From: Rhodospirillales bacterium | GTDB taxonomy: Bacteria > Pseudomonadota > Alphaproteobacteria > Rhodospirillales > Casp-alpha2 | Assembly (NCBI GenBank): GCA_018664265.1 | Contig: JABJOR010000209.1 | Span: 1 to 10,143 of the forward strand | Length of the DNA stretch: 10,143 nucleotides | Direction of reading: 5' to 3' | Part shown: positions 3,216-10,143 of the stretch, piece after piece | How positions within the stretch are numbered: position 1 is the stretch's first letter | Layout of the letters: every line of letters starts with the position of its first letter | Translations under genes and position numbers: made by a program | Notes under the pieces: model-generated | What the model saw: only the letters and a program-made list of their open reading frames with translations | Database searches by the model: none | Told to the model about the DNA's origin: nothing

Positions 3216-3255
3216 GGCGCTGGCCCTTAAATGGTTCCAGCGCCTTTTTCTTTTT
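3216..3255 (+). terminator. Intrinsic terminator ending the liv operon
   Basis: An 8-bp perfect GC-rich stem, GGCGCTGG (3216-3223) with CCAGCGCC (3237-3244) around a 13-nt loop, is followed by TTTTTCTTTTTT. It lies 21 bp after the livF-like stop. The stem sits between convergent genes, but read on the minus strand it lacks a U-run after the stem, so it probably works mainly for the plus strand. The same stem occurs at 7244-7271. Confidence 0.9.
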
Positions 3256-4355
3256 TACATGGCGTGAAGTCGTTCTCTGCCGGGATCAACGAAAGGAATG
3301 CTTGTTGCCGTTGCTTGGCACTGAATGGTCGAGCCACGTAATTCCAATTGTGTGCCTTCTTTGGCTGCGGATGGAATGAGCTGAACAAGGGCAATGGATT
3401 TCCCAAGATGTTTTGAGTACGCTGCTGTTGTAATACGACCAACAACATTACCATCGATGAAGAGTTTGGCATCATGGTCCACAACGCCGTCGTGATCTGC
3501 GACAATGCCGTAAAGTTTTACCTTATCTTTGCCTTCGAGTTCGAACACAGCTTGCTTGCCACGAAAATCACCTTTTTTGCGAGATACAGCCCAACCGAAA
3601 TCCATCTCCCATGGGGTGTTTTCCTCATTTGCTTCTGCCCCATAGAGCATTAAACCGCTTTCTACACAGACGGATTCAATTGCCCCTAGGGACATTGGAA
3701 GTAATCCAAGCGGCTGACCGTGATCCATCAAGCCTTGCCAAACGTCGACAACGTCATCTGCTCCAACGAAAACCTCGTATCCTCGTTCGCCTGAAAATCC
3801 GGTTCGTGAGAGCATTAGCTCCTTGCCGAAAAGGGTTGTGTCGATATGGTGTGAAAATACGAGTTCGCCAAGATTTGCATCTGTATGGGCGTCAAGAAGT
3901 TCCAGTGACTTTGGCCCCTGAACGGCGAGCACGTGCATATCGTCATCATCTTCGATACTGACATTGCGCCCTTTGGCGTACTCTTGCAAATATTCCAGCG
4001 TTGGCCCGATGCCGCTGGCAACCAGGTAGTGTCCTTCAGCCATAGTGTTAATGATGGCGTCGTCACAGAAGTGCCCGTCTTCTTTCAGGATAGGACAATA
4101 GGCCGATTTACCAACGGGGATTTTTGTCATGTCTCTGGTGACCAGATAATCGACAGTAGCAAGTGCATCCGGGCCACGGACCTGAATTTTTCTCAATGCA
4201 GAGGTATCCCACATGCCAATCGTTTTACGGACTGCGTCGTGTTCATCTAACAGATCAGTAGGATAAGTAGCGGGCAAGTCCATACCGTTCCAGTCTTCCA
4301 TTTCGCCACCAAGCGCGCGTAGAGTGGCGTCTAGCGCCGAAATTCGTTTAGCCAT
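3255..4355 (-). CDS. GcvT-family tetrahydrofolate-dependent methyl/aminomethyl transferase, copy 1
   Basis: Cytoplasmic GcvT/YgfZ-fold protein, 366 residues, expected to move a one-carbon group from a methylated substrate to tetrahydrofolate. The N-terminal folate domain includes GMWDTSALRKIQVRGPDAL (47-65), then GHFCDD with D98-D99 at the place of the T-protein catalytic Asp, and SRTGFSGERGYEV (183-195), the folate-site segment. A GCV_T_C-type C-terminal domain starts near residue 278. The start is ATG at 4355 with a CAGGGAAA ribosome-binding site at 4363-4370. No gcvH, gcvP or lpd lies nearby, so a role in the glycine cleavage complex is unlikely. The length and stand-alone form resemble DmdA (DMSP demethylase) and other dedicated demethylases, but I see no motif that fixes the substrate. 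It is divergent from the methyltransferase and about 64% identical, ungapped by hand count, to the protein at 7296-8396. Confidence 0.88.
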   Translation of the reverse strand: MAKRISALDATLRALGGEMEDWNGMDLPATYPTDLLDEHDAVRKTIGMWDTSALRKIQVRGPDALATVDYLVTRDMTKIPVGKSAYCPILKEDGHFCDDAIINTMAEGHYLVASGIGPTLEYLQEYAKGRNVSIEDDDDMHVLAVQGPKSLELLDAHTDANLGELVFSHHIDTTLFGKELMLSRTGFSGERGYEVFVGADDVVDVWQGLMDHGQPLGLLPMSLGAIESVCVESGLMLYGAEANEENTPWEMDFGWAVSRKKGDFRGKQAVFELEGKDKVKLYGIVADHDGVVDHDAKLFIDGNVVGRITTAAYSKHLGKSIALVQLIPSAAKEGTQLELRGSTIQCQATATSIPFVDPGRERLHAM

Positions 4356-4425: not shown

Positions 4426-4448
4426 ACTATAATTTCCAATTATAATAC
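4426..4448 (-). promoter_or_regulatory. Putative promoter for gcvT-like copy 1
   Basis: On the minus strand a TATAGT -10-like hexamer (4431 down to 4426) lies 16 bp from the edge of the 24-bp element, which would fill the -35 position. The predicted leader to the start codon is about 65 nt. An alternative TATAAT (4444 down to 4439) lies almost against the element. The region is AT-rich, so chance matches are easy. Confidence 0.4.
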
Positions 4449-4471
4449 TATATACCTTAAGTGATATATAC
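4448..4471. promoter_or_regulatory. Conserved 24-bp regulatory element (operator or activator site), copy 1
   Basis: The sequence is C-TATATAC-CTTAAGTGA-TATATAC: a 7-bp direct repeat with 16-bp periodicity. It also contains an imperfect palindrome centred on CTTAAG (TATAT at left, ATATA at right). It matches 8469-8492 at 23 of 24 bases, the only difference being CTTAAG against CTTAGG. It lies between divergent genes and occupies the -35 zone of the plus-strand promoter. No regulator gene is in the window, so the binding protein is unknown. Confidence 0.75.
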
Positions 4472-4494
4472 TAACATTGCCCACTCGTATAATT
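4466..4494 (+). promoter_or_regulatory. Putative promoter for the methyltransferase
   Basis: A perfect TATAAT at 4489-4494 lies 17 bp after the last six bases of the 24-bp element, which provide no TTGACA-like -35. The arrangement suggests an activator-dependent promoter or one blocked by a repressor. The expected transcript start near 4501 would give a 5' leader of about 220 nt. Confidence 0.6.
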
Positions 4495-4500
4495 TTTAGA

Positions 4501-4721
4501 GTGTGAGTAAAAATGGCGCTCATGCGAGGGAAATTATAAGTTGAGTGAAGCAATAATCTTTAAATTTTCCCCGGTGGCTTGAAACAAGCCTGCACTGCGT
4601 TCTTTCGGGGAGTGCTACAAATAATACAGGGAAAGTTAGCACATAAATAACAAGGACATATTGCAGGAAAAAATAAACACAATGCCATTGGTTTTGAAAG
4701 TTTTCAGGGAGACGACTAATT
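4501..4721 (+). promoter_or_regulatory. Long 5' leader of the methyltransferase, candidate structured RNA
   Basis: This is most of the 366-bp gap between the divergent genes. Hand pairing finds the hairpin GGCTTG (4576-4581)/CAAGCC (4585-4590). It also finds CCCCG (4569-4573)/CGGGG (4606-4610) and GCACT (4592-4596)/AGTGC (4611-4615). The last two interlock as an H-type pseudoknot, and their 3' strands are directly adjacent. GTGCTA (4612-4617) can instead pair with TAGCAC (4637-4642), and GGGAAA (4528-4533) can pair with TTTCCC (4566-4571), so exclusive alternatives exist. I do not recognise a known riboswitch class. The Shine-Dalgarno AGGGAG (4706-4711) is not obviously sequestered. The pairings could be chance. 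Confidence 0.35.
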
Positions 4722-5762
4722 ATGACTAATATAGGCGATGTTTTTGCAAACCTGGCTGATACAGGTGAGCCACCTTTGATATCGCAACTGGCGCGGGCTT
4801 CATGGCTTGCCGGTGCGGCGAAATCGGCAGTTAGCCTCGGGATATGCGATAAATTGAGTGGTCGGAAAGAAACCGCTGAATGGATGGCAAAAGAACTTGG
4901 TGCAAACCCACTGCATACTGAAGAAATGATGAACTCCTGCGTCGCTGCAGGTCTGTTGGTGAAGACGGGCAATGAATTTCAAAATTCTGAAGAAAGCGAC
5001 AAGTATCTTGTTAAAGGCAAGCCCACATATTATGGCGAGGCCTTTACCTACCTTTCAAGCTTGGGCTCTCTTTTTGATCAAGTGGACACCGCCATGCTTT
5101 CCGGCGAGGAAATGTCCCACGAAGATGAATTCGAATCAGAAGAAGCAGAAGCAGCCTATTGGACTCATTACATGCTGGCCATGGACCAATGGGGTGGCAG
5201 GATGCAGGAAGACATGCTTCTGGATAACGTTGATCTGACCGGAAAAAAGACATTCTTGGATGTGGGGTGTGGTTCCGGTGTTTACACCAGAGCTGTTTGC
5301 AAGAAATACCCGGATTTAAAGGGTATTCTTTTTGATCAGGAAAAAGCCTTGCCGCTGGCCGTATCTTTGGTGAAAGAGGCCGGAATGTCAGATCAAATCT
5401 CTACTCTGGCTGGTGATTATCATACTGATTCTTTTGGTTCTGGATATGATGCTGTTCTGTTTTCAGGTGCACTTATCCAGGAACCTGGTGATGCCCAGAT
5501 ACTTTTGTTGAAGAAAGCCTTTGAGAGCATGAATTCAGGCGGCATCGTCATTATTCAAGATATCTTTAAAATTGGTCCTTACACGGAAACGTCTCCGAAA
5601 ATTGCACTGGAAAGTTTAGTCGCCGCTGTTTTCTTCGGTGGCTCAGGTGGCGTGGTTTCAGGTGATGAAACGGAAGGTTTCCTTGCCGAGGCTGGCTTTA
5701 CATCTCCCACGCAAATTCCATTGCCTGGAGTTTATTCAATTGTAACAGCTGTTAAGCCTTAG
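4722..5762 (+). CDS. SAM-dependent methyltransferase with N-terminal dimerisation domain
   Basis: Class I methyltransferase of 346 residues in the Methyltransf_2/acetylserotonin O-methyltransferase-like group. Residues about 15-105 form a winged-helix dimerisation domain (SQLARASWLAGAAKSAVSLGICD, then a helix-turn-helix-like ELGANPLHTEEMMNSCVAAGLL). The SAM site is LDVGCGSG, with D180 to G186, followed by an acidic GDYHTD and by GGIVIIQD, which end strands of the Rossmann fold. Where O-methyltransferases of this family carry the catalytic His in L-H-D-W-P, this protein reads L-I-Q-E-P (251-255). It may therefore methylate N, S or C, or use another base. The start ATG has AGGGAG at 4706-4711, 10 nt upstream. 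Divergent from gcvT-like copy 1 across the shared element, it is probably co-regulated with it. The substrate is unknown; DsyB-type S-methyltransferases are one relative to test. Confidence 0.85.
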   Translation: MTNIGDVFANLADTGEPPLISQLARASWLAGAAKSAVSLGICDKLSGRKETAEWMAKELGANPLHTEEMMNSCVAAGLLVKTGNEFQNSEESDKYLVKGKPTYYGEAFTYLSSLGSLFDQVDTAMLSGEEMSHEDEFESEEAEAAYWTHYMLAMDQWGGRMQEDMLLDNVDLTGKKTFLDVGCGSGVYTRAVCKKYPDLKGILFDQEKALPLAVSLVKEAGMSDQISTLAGDYHTDSFGSGYDAVLFSGALIQEPGDAQILLLKKAFESMNSGGIVIIQDIFKIGPYTETSPKIALESLVAAVFFGGSGGVVSGDETEGFLAEAGFTSPTQIPLPGVYSIVTAVKP

Positions 5763-5790
5763 GGAAGGGCGCTATAGGGGCGAGAAAGTA

Positions 5791-5826
5791 TCTGGACAGG
5801 TACTTAAAGTTTATTGTCTGTCCAGA
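5791..5826 (+). terminator. Hairpin after the methyltransferase, possible weak terminator or operator
   Basis: A perfect 9-bp inverted repeat, TCTGGACAG (5791-5799) and CTGTCCAGA (5818-5826), surrounds an 18-nt loop and starts 28 bp after the methyltransferase stop. It is followed by ATATCTTCT rather than a run of T, so it is not a canonical terminator. It could equally be a regulator site for the downstream binding-protein gene. Confidence 0.4.
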
Positions 5827-5947
5827 ATATCTTCTATCGACCTAAAACTAATTAATTTTGCAGCTATAAAAAATGTAAAATTGGTATATCGTGGTTTTGT
5901 CGCGAAAATAAAAAAATCTAATCTTTATAAATCTAAGGGAGTTAGTT

Positions 5948-7216
5948 ATGGGAATTACGAGACGTAAGTTTGTTCAAACAACAGCAGCTGTTGGTACGCT
6001 TTCTGCCAGCACAGGTTTGCCAACACGGGTGTTTGCTGCCGGCCAAAAAACAATAAAAATTGGTATGAATATTCCAATGACAGGCGATTATGCCCCTTGG
6101 GGTTTGCCTGGCCTGTACGGTTGTCAGATTGTTGCTGATGATATTAACGCCGCAGGTGGTGTCGATATTGGCGGTGATAACTACGCCATTGAAATGGTCT
6201 CTTATGATCATGGCTACGATATTGAAAAAGCCCTTCAGGGTTACAAGAAAATGGTAACCGAAGATGACGTCAGCATGATCATGATGCTCGGTGGTGCGAC
6301 CATCGGTGCTGTGATGCCTTGGGGAGAGCGTAAAAAAGTCTTTACCACGACCTTATTGTCAAGTGACGTTACACCGGATACGGAACATTTGCTGGCACCT
6401 GTTGAAAACCACCCGCTTTATTTGGTAACCATTGTTGAGTACCTCAAAAGGACTTATCCGAATGCCAAACGGGCCGTTATTGTGACCAACAATGACGTGG
6501 AATATGGCCTGCAGGCTGTAGCCACTTTCCAGGCTGCTTTTGAAGTCGCAGGTATTGAAGTTGTTGATATTAATCTGCATGGTTTTGATGTCACCGATTT
6601 CGCCCCAATCGTCAGCTCCGTTTTGGACAAGGACCCTGATATCTTCTGCATGGCAACCAGCTTCTACACCACAACATTGATGGAGCAGCTTTATCATCAG
6701 GGTTATAAGGGCTTAGTCGTCAGCTCTACACTGGATTATCATGAAGAAGTCATTGAAAAAACCAGCCAGGAATTTGTCGATGGCACCATTCACTGTTTCC
6801 CTTCTTTCGATGATCCAAAATTGAATGAAGCGGGAATTGATTTCCCCGATCCAAACGGCTTTGATGCCAAATTCAGGGCGAAGCATCCTAATGACTGGTC
6901 TGCTGTGTCATGGGAATATCCGGCCATTATGTTGCAATGGATTGAAGGCGCGAAAGCAGCTGGCAGTATAGAATCGGAAGCGGTTCTGAGTGCTCTTAAA
7001 GGCAACCCGAACCCGCCGCATGTTTATGGTCCTGGGAAATGGTGGGGCAAAGAGCTCTGGGGTAGTGATAACGTCATTGTTGGCAACTGGCCTGTTGTCG
7101 CCATTGAAGGCGGCAAGACCCGAATTAAAGAGTTCGGCGATGTTGCAGGCTGGCTGGACAAGCACTCTGCCGTGTTGATCAAATACATGAAAGAACATGG
7201 TCTGCGCACAATGTAG
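5948..7216 (+). CDS. Tat-exported Liv-type (Peripla_BP_6) substrate-binding protein
   Basis: Periplasmic ligand-binding protein, 422 residues, predicted to deliver substrate to the Liv-type importer encoded at 2-3194. The N-terminus is a twin-arginine signal (R5-R6-K7-F8-V9), a hydrophobic stretch and a likely signal-peptidase site after VFA/VFAA (residues 28-31). There is no lipobox Cys, so it should be soluble. The mature part opens with KTIKIGMNIPMTGDYAPWG, the standard start of a type I binding fold. It continues with GCQIVADDINAAGGVDIGG and VIVTNNDVEYGLQAVATFQAAFEVAG, which fit the leucine/amide/urea-binding family. AAGGGAG at 5935-5941 lies 6 nt before the start. The stop is TAG followed at once by TAA. 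The gene is separated from its presumed transporter by two other genes. The ligand cannot be inferred reliably. Confidence 0.9.
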   Translation: MGITRRKFVQTTAAVGTLSASTGLPTRVFAAGQKTIKIGMNIPMTGDYAPWGLPGLYGCQIVADDINAAGGVDIGGDNYAIEMVSYDHGYDIEKALQGYKKMVTEDDVSMIMMLGGATIGAVMPWGERKKVFTTTLLSSDVTPDTEHLLAPVENHPLYLVTIVEYLKRTYPNAKRAVIVTNNDVEYGLQAVATFQAAFEVAGIEVVDINLHGFDVTDFAPIVSSVLDKDPDIFCMATSFYTTTLMEQLYHQGYKGLVVSSTLDYHEEVIEKTSQEFVDGTIHCFPSFDDPKLNEAGIDFPDPNGFDAKFRAKHPNDWSAVSWEYPAIMLQWIEGAKAAGSIESEAVLSALKGNPNPPHVYGPGKWWGKELWGSDNVIVGNWPVVAIEGGKTRIKEFGDVAGWLDKHSAVLIKYMKEHGLRTM

Positions 7217-7243
7217 TAATCAATTAGATTGCTAAAAATAAAA

Positions 7244-7275
7244 GGCGCTGGGTCCATATGGAACCAGCGCCTTTT
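7244..7275. terminator. Bidirectional intrinsic terminator between convergent genes
   Basis: The stem GGCGCTGG (7244-7251) with CCAGCGCC (7264-7271) extends inward through TCC/GGA after one G-A mismatch. It has TTTT-AATTT on the plus-strand side and, read from the other strand, TTTTATTTTT. It can therefore end both the binding-protein transcript and the minus-strand gcvT-like transcript. Its outer 8-bp stem is identical to that of the terminator at 3216-3244. Confidence 0.88.
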
Positions 7276-7295
7276 AATTTGCGGTATTGGGTTTG

Positions 7296-8396
7296 TTAAT
7301 TCGCCAACTGCTTTGTTCTGCCAGGATCAACAAACGGGATGCTGGTGGCTGTGGCTGTGCATTGAATGGTTGGGCCTTTTAGATCCAGCTTCGTGCCTTC
7401 TACGGCAGCAGACGGGGTCAAATGAACGAGCGCCTGTGATTGCCCCATACGCTTGGAATAAGCTGGTGTTGTGACGTGGCCTACAACCTCTCCGTTAATG
7501 GAAAGCTCGGCGCCATGTTCCACAACATCATCATGATCTGCAACAATACCGAAGTATTTGACTTTCTCTTTTCCTTCAAGGGCGAAGACGGCTTCCTTGC
7601 CTCGGAAATCGCCTTTCTTGCGAGATACTGCCCATCCCATATTGACTTCCCAAGGTGTATTTTCCTCGGTTGCCTCAGCGCCATAAGCCATAAGGCCACT
7701 TTCAATATGAACCATTTCAAGTCCACCAAATGAAATCGGCTTAAGGCCAAAATCTTGGCCTTTTTCCATAAGCTCGTCCCAGATACCAACAACTTCGGTG
7801 TCGCGCATATAAAGCTCATACCCTCTTTCGCCAGAATAGCCCGTGCGAGAAACCATCATGTCTACACCACAAACCTTGGTGTGTATCTGATGGCTAAATG
7901 CCAGGTCACGAAGGTTGGCTTCCGTTTGCTCGTCAAGAAAATCTATGGAATTTGGTCCCTGAACCGTGATGATGTGCAGATCATCATCAAGCTCAACTGT
8001 CATATTTTTACCCTTAACATATTCCTGTAACAGCTCATACGACGGGCCGATGCTGCCAGCGAGCAGGAGGTGGTTTTCTTCTACATGGAAGGCGATACCG
8101 TCATCACAAAAGTGGCCATTGTCTTTCAGGATCGGGCAATAGGCTGATTTTCCAACATAGATCTTGGACATATCGCGGGTGACCAGATAGTCCATAGCCG
8201 CCAGAGCGTCTGGTCCATGGACCTGAATTTTTGTTAGTGCAGAGGTATCCCACATGCCAACGGTTTCACGAATTGCGTCATGCTCAAGATTCATATCCCA
8301 GGGAAAGCCAAACGCGACATCCATGTTATTCCATTCGCCCATTTCCGCGCCGAGCGCGAGAAGTGTTGGTCCGAGCGTTGATGTTCGTTTAGCCAT
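7296..8396 (-). CDS. GcvT-family tetrahydrofolate-dependent methyl/aminomethyl transferase, copy 2
   Basis: Paralogue of the protein at 3255-4355, also 366 residues. By hand alignment about 233 positions are identical with no gaps. The GMWDTSAL segment, VGKSAYCPIL (81-90), GHFCDD (D98-D99), SRTGYSGERGYE (183-194), EENTPWE, AVSRKKGDFRGK and TSIPFVDPGR (351-360) are all conserved. The catalytic-type Asp and the folate segment therefore remain in both, and neither copy looks degenerate. Differences cluster in residues 21-38, 101-120, 171-180 and 195-230. Some of these regions could line the substrate pocket, suggesting two related substrates or two steps (inference). The start is ATG at 8396 with AAGGAT at 8406-8411. 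It is divergent from the glycosyltransferase across the shared element. No glycine cleavage partners are in the window. Confidence 0.88.
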   Translation of the reverse strand: MAKRTSTLGPTLLALGAEMGEWNNMDVAFGFPWDMNLEHDAIRETVGMWDTSALTKIQVHGPDALAAMDYLVTRDMSKIYVGKSAYCPILKDNGHFCDDGIAFHVEENHLLLAGSIGPSYELLQEYVKGKNMTVELDDDLHIITVQGPNSIDFLDEQTEANLRDLAFSHQIHTKVCGVDMMVSRTGYSGERGYELYMRDTEVVGIWDELMEKGQDFGLKPISFGGLEMVHIESGLMAYGAEATEENTPWEVNMGWAVSRKKGDFRGKEAVFALEGKEKVKYFGIVADHDDVVEHGAELSINGEVVGHVTTPAYSKRMGQSQALVHLTPSAAVEGTKLDLKGPTIQCTATATSIPFVDPGRTKQLAN

Positions 8397-8444
8397 GTCT
8401 ATTGTATCCTTGTTGTTTGAATGGAAAAATAAGCCCGTCCCTGA

Positions 8445-8469
8445 ACTATCAAAAAATAAAGAGTCACTC
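8445..8469 (-). promoter_or_regulatory. Putative promoter for gcvT-like copy 2
   Basis: On the minus strand GATAGT (8450 down to 8445) lies 18 bp from the edge of the 24-bp element. That matches the layout at copy 1, where TATAGT lies 16 bp away. The predicted leader is about 40 nt. The hexamer match is modest; the parallel with copy 1 is the main support. Confidence 0.35.
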
Positions 8470-8492
8470 TATATACCTTAGGTGATATATAC
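8469..8492. promoter_or_regulatory. Conserved 24-bp regulatory element (operator or activator site), copy 2
   Basis: The sequence is C-TATATAC-CTTAGGTGA-TATATAC, identical to 4448-4471 except for one A-to-G change in the spacer. It has the same orientation relative to the plus-strand gene and to the divergent gcvT-like gene. Bases flanking the element are not conserved between the copies, which argues for selection on the element itself. Confidence 0.75.
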
Positions 8493-8514
8493 GGAGCTTA
8501 GGGAACACTATAAT
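8487..8514 (+). promoter_or_regulatory. Putative promoter for the glycosyltransferase-cupin operon
   Basis: A perfect TATAAT at 8509-8514 lies 16 bp after the 24-bp element, against 17 bp at the methyltransferase promoter. There is no TTGACA-like -35 outside the element. The predicted leader is about 70 nt. Confidence 0.6.
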
Positions 8515-8591: not shown

Positions 8592-9881
8592 ATGAGTATA
8601 GGTAAAACAATCGCGTTTTTTCCAGAGGCATGTTACGGACCGGCATTGAATTCTGTCGGGATCGCACAAGCTTGTGAAAAATTGGGGCACAAGGAGGTCT
8701 TTCTGACGGATCCGGGGCTATCCGGTGTTTATTCCGGTTATGGCTTCGAAGAGCATGCCGTCAATATGTCAGAACCAATGCCACCGGAAGAAATGGCGAA
8801 ATATTGGACGGACTTTATTGATGGCCACATTCCAAATTTTGCATTGTCCCCATATGACCAGATCGACAACTATGTAAAAGAATGTTGGGAAAACATAGTC
8901 AACACCTCCGTTTGGGCCGAGAAAGATCTCCCTGGTATTCTTGATAAGGTAAAGCCTGATTTGATCTGTGTTGATAACGTCATCCTGTTCCCGGCTTGTA
9001 AGCAATACGGCGTTCCCTGGGTGCGGATTGTATCGTGTAGTGAGAACGAAGTTACCGACCCAAAAATTCCACCGCACCTATCTGGCTGTGGGGAAAATGA
9101 TTTCGAAGCACAACAGGCTTATCGTGATAAATTCAATGAAGTCATTGCCCCAATCCATGCAGAATTTAACGAACATTTAAAAAGTTGTGGAATAGACCCG
9201 TATCCGATTGGTCAGTTCTGTGAAGATTCACCGTATCTGAATTTGCTGCTCTATCCGGAACCTGTAAAGTTCAACCGTAGCATTCCTCTGGATCCTAAGA
9301 AATTCCAGCATCTTGAAGGGTGTGTTCGCGCTGAGGCTGACTACGAAATTCCAACGTTTGATGCCCATAACGATGGAAAATTAATCTACCTGAGTTTTGG
9401 CAGCCTTGGATGTGGTGATACCGATTTGCTTAATCGCATTATCAACGAACTGGGCAAACAGCCATATCGCGTTTTGGTAAATGTCGGTGACTATATGGAC
9501 GCCTATACCGACTTGCCTCCGAACGTTAAAATCAGTAACTGGTTCCCGCAACCAACTGTTATTGATCAAATGGATATGGTTATCCACCACGGTGGCAACA
9601 ATACGTTCACCGAATGTCTGTATTTTGGTAAACCTGCCATCATCATGCCTTATGTTTGGGATGGTCATGATAATGCAACCCGTGTTCAGGAAACAGGTCA
9701 TGGCTTCAAAATGCATCGCTCTAATTGGGAACCGGAAGAACTGATTTCCAAGATCGAAGCTTGTCTGAACGATGAAGCCATACAGGCAAAAATGGCCTCC
9801 ACATCAAAACACATGAAACAATTCAATGGCCCGGAAAGAGCCGCTGGATTGCTGGACCAATTATTGAAGGACAATAGTTAA
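8592..9881 (+). CDS. GT1-type (UDP-glycosyltransferase-like) glycosyltransferase
   Basis: GT-B fold glycosyltransferase, 429 residues, resembling the macrolide/UGT (MGT, YjiC-like) group that moves a sugar from a nucleotide donor to a small molecule. The donor-binding C-terminal half is clear: LIYLSFGSLGCGD, then NWFPQPTVIDQMDMVIHHGG with H332-H333-G334-G335, NNTFTECLYFGKPAIIMP and DGHDNA (357-362) in place of the usual DQxxNA. The N-terminal acceptor half starts with TIAFFPEACYGPALNSVGIA. The GH dipeptide that normally holds the catalytic His appears as GP, so the acceptor chemistry may differ. No signal peptide or membrane segment is evident, so it is probably cytoplasmic. CAGGGAGG at 8577-8583 lies 8 nt before ATG. 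The stop overlaps the start of the next gene by one base (TAATG). The acceptor and sugar donor cannot be read from the sequence. Confidence 0.85.
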   Translation: MSIGKTIAFFPEACYGPALNSVGIAQACEKLGHKEVFLTDPGLSGVYSGYGFEEHAVNMSEPMPPEEMAKYWTDFIDGHIPNFALSPYDQIDNYVKECWENIVNTSVWAEKDLPGILDKVKPDLICVDNVILFPACKQYGVPWVRIVSCSENEVTDPKIPPHLSGCGENDFEAQQAYRDKFNEVIAPIHAEFNEHLKSCGIDPYPIGQFCEDSPYLNLLLYPEPVKFNRSIPLDPKKFQHLEGCVRAEADYEIPTFDAHNDGKLIYLSFGSLGCGDTDLLNRIINELGKQPYRVLVNVGDYMDAYTDLPPNVKISNWFPQPTVIDQMDMVIHHGGNNTFTECLYFGKPAIIMPYVWDGHDNATRVQETGHGFKMHRSNWEPEELISKIEACLNDEAIQAKMASTSKHMKQFNGPERAAGLLDQLLKDNS

Positions 9882-10143
9882 TGGCGCACGACACTCTTAA
9901 TTCATCGGCACCACATATAAAAAACGCCACAACAATCAGCCATGATCTGGAAGATTGGGGCGATCAGCCGGATATGCTCGAAGGGCAGTCCCATTCAAGC
10001 GGAGTTCTGCTGTGGGCCAATGAGGATGCTTCATCTGAATCTGCCATGTGGATATGCACACCAGGAACCTGGCGGTTGAGCATTCCCAGCGACGAGTTGT
10101 GTTATTTCGTTTCAGGCCGGGCGACCTATACCAGTGATGATGG
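9881..10143 (+). CDS. DUF861/Cupin_3 domain protein, 3' end beyond the window
   Basis: 87 codons are visible. The ATG at 9881 shares one base with the glycosyltransferase stop (TAATG), so translation is probably coupled. After a polar N-terminus of about 35 residues comes a cupin segment: GVLLWANEDASSESAMWICTPG, TWRLSIPSDELCYFVSG and RATYTSDDG. This matches the Cupin_3 (DUF861) pattern of xGxWxxTPGxxxxxxxxDExCYxxxGxxxxTxxDG. The family includes ureidoglycine aminohydrolase-like and EutQ-like cupins, many of unknown function. The visible part shows no His-rich metal site, so catalysis is uncertain. It may bind or sense a metabolite of this pathway. Confidence 0.75.
   Translation, partial: MAHDTLNSSAPHIKNATTISHDLEDWGDQPDMLEGQSHSSGVLLWANEDASSESAMWICTPGTWRLSIPSDELCYFVSGRATYTSDD

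What the first reader, a model, noticed from the sequence alone, without database searches (positions are those of the whole stretch)
4448..8492. Same 24-bp element in two divergent promoters, with matched -10 spacing on both sides
Positions 4448-4471 and 8469-8492 agree at 23 of 24 bases while nearby non-coding bases do not. A perfect TATAAT follows at 17 and 16 bp toward the plus-strand genes, and TATAGT or GATAGT lies at 16 and 18 bp on the gcvT sides. The core is a direct repeat TATATAC-N9-TATATAC. This is what one regulator controlling four transcripts would look like. No regulator gene is in the window, so it lies elsewhere, perhaps beside the cupin gene or upstream of livH.
Basis: partly seen in the sequence, partly recalled or inferred. 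Interest (0 to 1): 0.75.

Follow-up and report, generated by a model that had tools for sequence, protein, structure and literature searches.

The report
LuxR-type operator in two divergent promoters
The repeated 24-base element is very probably the DNA landing site of a regulator related to quorum-sensing LuxR proteins; the same kind of site lies in front of that regulator's own gene and an amine-type transporter elsewhere in the genome, so one switch probably runs a scattered set of genes.

Summary
It is an imperfect palindrome, on the minus strand GTATATAYCMC-N4-GGKATATAG, rather than a direct repeat. Related clusters in two other alphaproteobacterial MAGs keep it (one strongly, one weakly) at the gcvT2|UGT promoter. 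Weaker copies in the own genome and both relatives lie between orthologous LuxR-type (GerE) regulator genes and divergent potA-type genes; in the own genome this is contig C381. A motif built de novo from nine spacers upstream of LuxR homologues, without window input, ranks the two window elements first and second in 10,143 bp. The regulator's sensor domain resembles VqsR of Pseudomonas aeruginosa. Best reading: operator of a VqsR-like LuxR regulator co-controlling amine-type transport and this GcvT/glycosyltransferase cluster, perhaps as class II activator. Binding, activation versus repression, and ligand are not shown. In two gammaproteobacterial MAGs the same gene pair instead carries a TetR-type operator shared with a TetR gene.

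The parts
4448..4471 (-). Element copy 1 (minus strand GTATATATCACTTAAGGTATATAG), proposed LuxR-type operator between gcvT1 and the O-methyltransferase gene
8469..8492 (-). Element copy 2 (minus strand GTATATATCACCTAAGGTATATAG), proposed LuxR-type operator between gcvT2 and the glycosyltransferase gene; conserved in L029 and, weaker, L032
4488..4493 (+). TATAAT, putative -10 box toward the O-methyltransferase, 16 bp from copy 1
   Evidence: sequence only
8509..8514 (+). TATAAT, putative -10 box toward the glycosyltransferase, 16 bp from copy 2
   Evidence: sequence only
4426..4431 (-). TATAGT, putative -10 box toward gcvT1, 16 bp from copy 1
   Evidence: sequence only
8445..8450 (-). GATAGT, putative -10 box toward gcvT2, 18 bp from copy 2
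   Evidence: sequence only
3255..4355 (-). gcvT1, GcvT/DmdA-like folate-dependent aminomethyltransferase or demethylase
4722..5762 (+). O-methyltransferase-like gene (Methyltransf_2 plus dimerisation domain)
7296..8396 (-). gcvT2, GcvT/DmdA-like gene
8592..9881 (+). UGT/MGT-type glycosyltransferase gene
9881..10141 (+). EutQ-like cupin gene, cut by the contig end

Best explanation
The element is the operator of a LuxR-family (GerE) regulator with a VqsR-like sensor domain. In the own genome the regulator gene lies on contig C381, divergent from a potA-type gene that heads a run of transporter genes, with another copy of the operator between them. The regulator, presumably as a dimer, would bind GTATATAYCMC-N4-GGKATATAG in both window spacers and so control gcvT1, the O-methyltransferase, gcvT2 and the glycosyltransferase-cupin transcript together with the transporter. 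Because the site covers the -35 region, with a -10-like box 16-18 bp away on each side, I think it works as a class II (lux-box-like) activator of the metabolic genes, probably in response to an amine taken up by the transporter. Shown by computation: motif identity, its conservation, its linkage to the regulator gene. Inferred: binding, dimer, activation, ligand, autoregulation. The confidence below is for 'operator of this regulator'; for the activator mode alone I would say about 0.6.
For: (1) 22 of 24 bases kept at gcvT2|UGT in L029 (= genome G002), and 15 of 20 core bases in L032 (= genome G074), the latter reached in 0 of 2000 shuffles. (2) Weaker copies lie between LuxR-type and potA-type genes in the three cluster-bearing alpha genomes G000, G002 and G074; the three LuxR proteins are 63-72% identical. 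(3) Eight plasmid loci fetched only because they encode a LuxR homologue (8 of 40 listed; 317 records matched) all carry a GTATATAY site in front of it; in 7 of 8 an ABC ATPase gene next to a spermidine/putrescine-type binding protein gene is annotated as divergent, the eighth record being unannotated. (4) De novo motif from those eight spacers plus L076, with no window input: its top two hits in the window are the two elements, 13.4 bits each, next distinct 7.3 (width 20); at width 24, 10.7 and 10.2, next distinct 3.9. A matrix from 10 regulator sites excluding this genome gives 23.3 and 20.6 bits; the highest of 200 window shuffles is 17.5. (5) In 11 LuxR proteins aligned, the DNA-binding region of the ten others is 32 to 51 of 56 residues identical to the own one. 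(6) In Ruegeria conchae the LuxR gene sits between a spermidine/putrescine-type transporter operon and a glycosyltransferase gene.
Against: No binding or expression data. The -10 spacing is not kept at LuxR|potA, nor on the UGT side in L029 and L032. With up to 2 mismatches, hits are little above the reversed-pattern control (G000 23 against 19, G002 24 against 16), so the G002 regulator site rests on orthology. The G000, G002 and G074 regulator sites were found with cluster-derived patterns, so they are not independent; four of the nine homology-found sites are near-identical Rhizobiaceae/Phyllobacteriaceae sequences, and the de novo method forces one site per spacer. The own genome is only 78% complete, and a LuxR paralogue could bind. 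L032's copy scores only 10.9 bits with the regulator-only matrix, below the best window shuffles, though it is the top site of that 15-kb locus. Two of 12 spacers (L076, L190) were not picked correctly by the cluster-only matrix because the stretches I gave it ended inside the site.
Confidence: 0.8

Rival explanations
1. Same operator and same LuxR-type regulator, but acting as a repressor that blocks the -35 region of all four promoters until a ligand releases it.
For: The element covers where a -35 box would be, so the site could equally occlude polymerase. In the gamma lineage the same gene pair carries an operator inside a -35/-10 spacer, a repressor-like position. Three regulator loci (L076, L190, L191) have the site at or just before the LuxR start codon, fitting autorepression. 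A promoter-like TTGATG-17-TATAAT ends at 4446, just before copy 1.
Against: The promoter scan found no -35-like hexamer for the TATAAT boxes at 4488 and 8509 (none of its 8 hits uses them), so those promoters look weak without an activator; the hit ending at 4446 is one of 8 where shuffles give a mean of 11.6.
Confidence: 0.3
2. The element is bound by a different regulator that happens to share the motif, or by a paralogous LuxR.
For: G002 has a further LuxR protein about 40% identical to its own ortholog; the own genome is incomplete.
Against: The motif precedes the same orthologous regulator in the three cluster-bearing alpha genomes examined and in 8 of 8 plasmid loci fetched. The GntR/FCD regulator of L147 and the HTH_26 regulator of L029 have no match at E 1e-8 in G000 or G074.
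Confidence: 0.12
3. A leftover of the gcvT duplication without function: both copies descend from one duplicated promoter.
For: gcvT1 and gcvT2 are paralogues (64% identical), and the L029 relative has only one copy.
Against: Flanks have no similarity while the element keeps 23 of 24 bases; the element is also conserved across genera and a related motif precedes the regulator gene.
Confidence: 0.03
4. Chance AT-rich similarity.
For: AT-rich spacers hold many TATA-like words.
Against: Shuffle maximum 20 of 24 in 500 trials; cross-genome conservation; regulator linkage.
Confidence: 0.01

Closest known systems
lux box and LuxR class II activation (Vibrio fischeri; recalled)
   Same: About 20-bp imperfect palindrome; regulator with GerE domain and a model that matches quorum-sensing LuxR structures; site overlapping the -35 region of divergent promoters
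   Different: Different sequence; no PF03472 autoinducer domain detected; I did not search for a LuxI; ligand unknown
VqsR of Pseudomonas aeruginosa (PDB 5xhx)
   Same: Sensor domain alignable by sequence (E 3.6e-14) and best structural match of the model (TM 0.87 over the solved domain)
   Different: About 25% identity; VqsR acts in quorum sensing (recalled); its operator was not compared
Subgroup E LuxR solos of fluorescent pseudomonads, PjeR and PolR (PMC8546723, passages read)
   Same: LuxR gene flanked by polyamine transport genes
   Different: Pseudomonas proteins, not shown here to be orthologous; promoters did not respond to putrescine, spermidine or spermine in that study
TmaR/TmoR control of trimethylamine genes in Ruegeria pomeroyi (PMC13390433, abstract and Results read)
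   Same: Regulation of methylated-amine catabolism in marine alphaproteobacteria; tmm follows livF in L032
   Different: TmaR is AraC-type and TmoR GntR-type; a term search found no binding motif or site in the main text

Membership tests
LuxR/GerE transcription regulators (the proposed binder) | C-terminal GerE helix-turn-helix (PF00196) | tested here: met
   49.6-60.9 bits in 4 of 4 LuxR proteins scanned, cut-off 23.5
AHL-binding quorum-sensing LuxR proteins | Autoinducer-binding domain PF03472 detected | tested here: not met
   No PF03472 match at E up to 1 in the 4 proteins, although the model matches RhlR, SdiA and QscR structures
VqsR-like LuxR regulators | Sensor domain homologous to VqsR | tested here: met
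   phmmer E 3.6e-14; Foldseek E 7.3e-10
VqsR-like LuxR regulators | Function in quorum sensing | not testable with these tools
   No expression data
lux-box-type class II operator | About 20-bp palindrome centred near -42 of the transcript start | tested here: inconclusive
   Palindrome and -10 geometry fit at the window sites, but starts are unmapped and the geometry is mostly not kept elsewhere
Operator of the C381 LuxR regulator | Same motif in front of the regulator's own gene in several genomes | tested here: met
   12 of 12 regulator spacers examined carry it: 10 by cluster-only matrix, L076 and L190 by de novo motif on longer stretches. Three of the 12 (G000, G002, G074) had been found through the motif, nine through homology
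Operator of the C381 LuxR regulator | Direct binding | not testable with these tools
   needs EMSA or footprinting
TetR operator seen in gamma relatives | TAACTGACTNACNNGTCAG in the gcvT2|UGT spacer | tested here: not met
   Perfect matches only in the L030 and L031 clusters; in G000 one 2-mismatch hit, on contig C97

The most novel reading that the evidence does not exclude
A large, apparently uncharacterised family of VqsR-like LuxR regulators in alphaproteobacteria senses an amine and binds GTATATAYCMC-N4-GGKATATA. Its regulon normally covers its divergent pot-type transporter, and in this lineage it has captured a mobile GcvT/glycosyltransferase/LivHMGF cluster, which in gammaproteobacteria is instead wired to a TetR repressor that likewise sits beside a pot-type transporter gene. 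The same genes would then have been wired twice to amine-transport regulators of unrelated families.
Probability: 0.45. Interest if true: 0.62.

Novelty: new member of a known kind. Interest (0 to 1): 0.52.

Why it matters
It gives a concrete operator, a candidate regulator and a testable regulon for a LuxR-type family with 2395 homologues at E up to 1e-20, and it ties a poorly understood GcvT/UGT/cupin gene set to amine-type uptake. None of the papers listed by nine literature searches (three of them returned no paper, and 43, 82, 90 and 101 showed only the top of longer lists) is evidently about this operator or regulon, judging by titles and abstracts; most subscription journals are not held. 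It also shows that the same gene pair can carry unrelated operators in different lineages.

Tried and rejected
GntR/FCD regulator of the related polyamine-type UGT cluster (L147): no match at E 1e-8 in G000, G002, G072, G073, G074 or G015; one 31% match in G001. HTH_26 regulator of L029: no match in G000 or G074; distant matches (35-39%) in G015 and G072. TorR-like and AsnC-like regulators on the L029 contig were noted but not searched elsewhere; their usual sites (recalled) do not fit. Riboswitch in the long O-methyltransferase leader: no Rfam match in the window at E up to 1, fold z -0.59. Direct-repeat reading: decays in L029 and L032. Pattern scans for further regulon members or carriers: 48 family genomes, 3 matched with up to 2 mismatches (own, G002 and one site in G010); 385 class genomes, only the own one matched exactly; 398 phylum genomes, 4 matched, the three others inside open reading frames. 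The class and phylum draws share genomes, and G002 and G074 were not among them. Conserved -10 spacing as a general rule: not kept. G000:C507 site (2 mismatches): just before the start of a cupin-like gene (by eye), probably chance. Cluster rarity: close gcvT2 orthologues in 2 of 317 genomes of the order.
Full report
The observation. Window positions 4448-4471 and 8469-8492 differ at one base of 24; the flanks do not align. The best ungapped 24-base match between shuffled versions of the two spacers was 20 in 500 trials. TATAAT follows both copies at exactly 16 bp; a same-offset TATAAT arose in 1 of 20,000 shuffles of the first 60 bp of the flanks and 0 of 20,000 of 99 bp. The own genome (G000, 3.28 Mb, 603 contigs, 78% complete) has only these two matches to the 24-mer at up to 3 mismatches. 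The window is the whole of contig C596.

Symmetry. TATATAC-N9-TATATAC is exact in both copies, but the left part also pairs with the right as an inverted repeat (TATATaCC-TTAA-GTGATATA). In relatives the direct repeat decays (7 of 8 positions in the window copies, 6 and 4 of 8 in L029 and L032), while at least 14 of 22 positions are self-complementary in all four.

Setting. The genes are livHMGF, gcvT1, an O-methyltransferase, a Peripla_BP_6 binding protein, gcvT2, a UGT/MGT-type glycosyltransferase and a cupin (Pfam for the last six; livHMGF by eye). A search of species genomes for the glycosyltransferase kept the best 80 of 140 loci; in six of the 80 (L029-L034) a gcvT2 relative is divergent from the glycosyltransferase. 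L029 is genome G002 of the same family; there gcvT1, the O-methyltransferase and gcvT2 lie on one strand opposite the glycosyltransferase. Its gcvT2|UGT spacer holds CTATATTCCTTAAGTGGTATATAC, 22 of 24. L032 (genome G074) has a weaker copy at the same place, 15 of 20 core bases, not reached in 2000 shuffles. L030, L031, L033 and L034 show no such copy.

Finding the regulator. In G074 the degenerate core matches at up to 1 mismatch in two places (control: none): the cluster, and a spot between an ABC ATPase gene of PotA type and a divergent GerE/LuxR-type gene. Searching all held loci with that LuxR protein hit, besides itself, four loci. Two had been fetched only because they carried weak element copies, at G000 C381 (63% identical) and G002 C79 (69%). 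A third is a more distant paralogue in G002 (36%), and the fourth lies in the L076 glycosyltransferase locus (48%). In G000, G002 and G074 the order is LuxR, element, PotA-type gene; PotA type by TIGR01187 in G000 (365.6 bits, cut-off 355.6), by Pfam ABC_tran and TOBE_2 in G074, by eye in G002. In G000 the regulator is at about C381:11395-12273 (minus), the site at 12311-12334 and potA from 12428. Pairwise identity of the three LuxR proteins is 63-72%.

Independent tests. The regulator was searched in plasmid records by protein alone: 317 records matched, 40 were listed, 8 were fetched. In 7 of the 8 the LuxR gene is annotated divergent from an ABC ATPase gene that is followed by a spermidine/putrescine-type binding protein gene; the eighth has no annotation. 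With L076 this gave nine spacers found without the motif. De novo motif finding (one site per spacer, by construction) returned a site with TATATAC or TATATAT in each; scanning the window with that motif placed the two elements first and second, 13.4 bits each, next distinct 7.3 (width 20). The nine are not all independent: four sites are near-identical. A matrix from the four cluster sites alone picked the shared site in 10 of 12 regulator spacers; shuffles reached its score in 4 of 300 for G002, 7 of 300 for L191, 1 of 300 for L196 and 0 of 300 for the other seven. In L076 and L190 it chose another site because my stretch ended inside the right one (L190's wrong site: 16 of 300). A matrix from ten regulator sites without this genome scored the window elements 23.3 and 20.6, against a highest shuffle of 17.5 in 200; L029 scored 19.9 and L032 10.9. 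Two of those ten sites (G002, G074) had been found with a cluster-derived pattern. Over the 15 aligned sites 8 of 24 columns are invariant and three more agree in 14 of 15. A matrix from all sites, run over the 1.9 Mb of held loci, gave scores of 24 and above only at these known sites.

The protein. Pfam finds GerE, not PF03472. Sequence search of solved structures gives 5xhx (E 3.6e-14), which the fold search names as the VqsR ligand-binding domain of Pseudomonas aeruginosa (Foldseek E 7.3e-10, TM 0.87 on the target), followed by RhlR, SdiA and QscR (model pLDDT 81.7, pTM 0.59). 2395 proteins match at E up to 1e-20. The DNA-binding region is conserved among the 11 LuxR proteins aligned.

How it may work. 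With -10-like boxes 16-18 bp from either edge, the palindrome would centre near -41 of each start, and a promoter scan found no -35-like hexamer for the two TATAAT boxes. That geometry fits class II activation (recalled from the LuxR literature). It holds for the four window promoters and, with a 4-of-6 box, the gcvT2 side of L029; it does not hold elsewhere. In L076, L190 and L191 the site lies at or just before the LuxR start codon, which fits autorepression. Activator: about 0.6; repressor: about 0.3. The ligand is guessed to be an amine, from the pot-type genes and from G002 neighbours that look by eye like glutamine-synthetase- and amine-oxidase-type genes; it is untested. A further weak site (21.9 bits) precedes a potD-like gene (by eye) at G000:C552.

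Contrast in gamma MAGs. L030 and L031 carry TTGTAA-N17-TATTAT or TAGTAT with CTGACTNACNNGTCAG in the spacer. A like site in the same promoter frame precedes a TetR gene in both genomes (L158, L159; proteins 75% identical; TetR_N and BetI-type C-terminal domain met, BetI equivalog cut-off not met), divergent from a potD-like gene (by eye) in L158. At up to 2 mismatches the pattern hit 4 places in G072 (control 3), 2 in G073 (control 0), 1 in G000 (1), 1 in G002 (1) and 0 in G074 (5). So the same gene pair seems wired to a regulator of a different family there.

Literature. I read the abstract and Results of PMC13390433 (TmaR, TmoR) and passages of PMC8546723 (LuxR solos beside polyamine genes, not induced by polyamines). 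Of other papers I saw only listings. Searches listed no paper that is evidently about this operator; several lists were capped, and most subscription journals are not held.

Limits. All of this is comparative sequence evidence. The G000 assembly is fragmentary, weak sites at 2 mismatches are little above control counts, and few cluster-bearing genomes exist in the collections.

Noticed in passing
L030:4162-4180, L031:1642-1660, L158:1501-1519, L159:1501-1519 (-): TetR-type operator (CTGACT...GTCAG) inside a TTGTAA-N17-TAGTAT-like promoter, shared by gcvT2|UGT and TetR-upstream spacers in two gammaproteobacterial MAGs.
   Followed up: partly
L032:11139-12485: Trimethylamine monooxygenase (NF058570, 834 bits) directly after livF in the L032 cluster, hinting that the cluster handles methylated amines.
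   Followed up: partly
L170:1472-1495 (G000:C552): Weak operator-like site (21.9 bits) upstream of a potD-like binding protein gene and after an aminotransferase-like gene (names by eye); possible extra regulon member.
   Followed up: partly
L134:6048-10867 (G002 contig C72): TorT-, TorS- and TorR-like genes (names by eye; response regulator domains by Pfam for the last) beside a glycine-betaine-type ABC transporter near the L029 cluster.
   Followed up: no
window 4500-4721: The O-methyltransferase transcript would have a leader of about 220 nt; no Rfam match and no unusual folding energy.
   Followed up: yes
window 8592-10141 and L147, L189: The UGT plus EutQ-like cupin pair is widespread; in annotated Rhizobium and Ruegeria plasmids it lies next to spermidine/putrescine-type ABC transporter and GntR regulator genes. 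Its biochemical role is unclear.
   Followed up: partly
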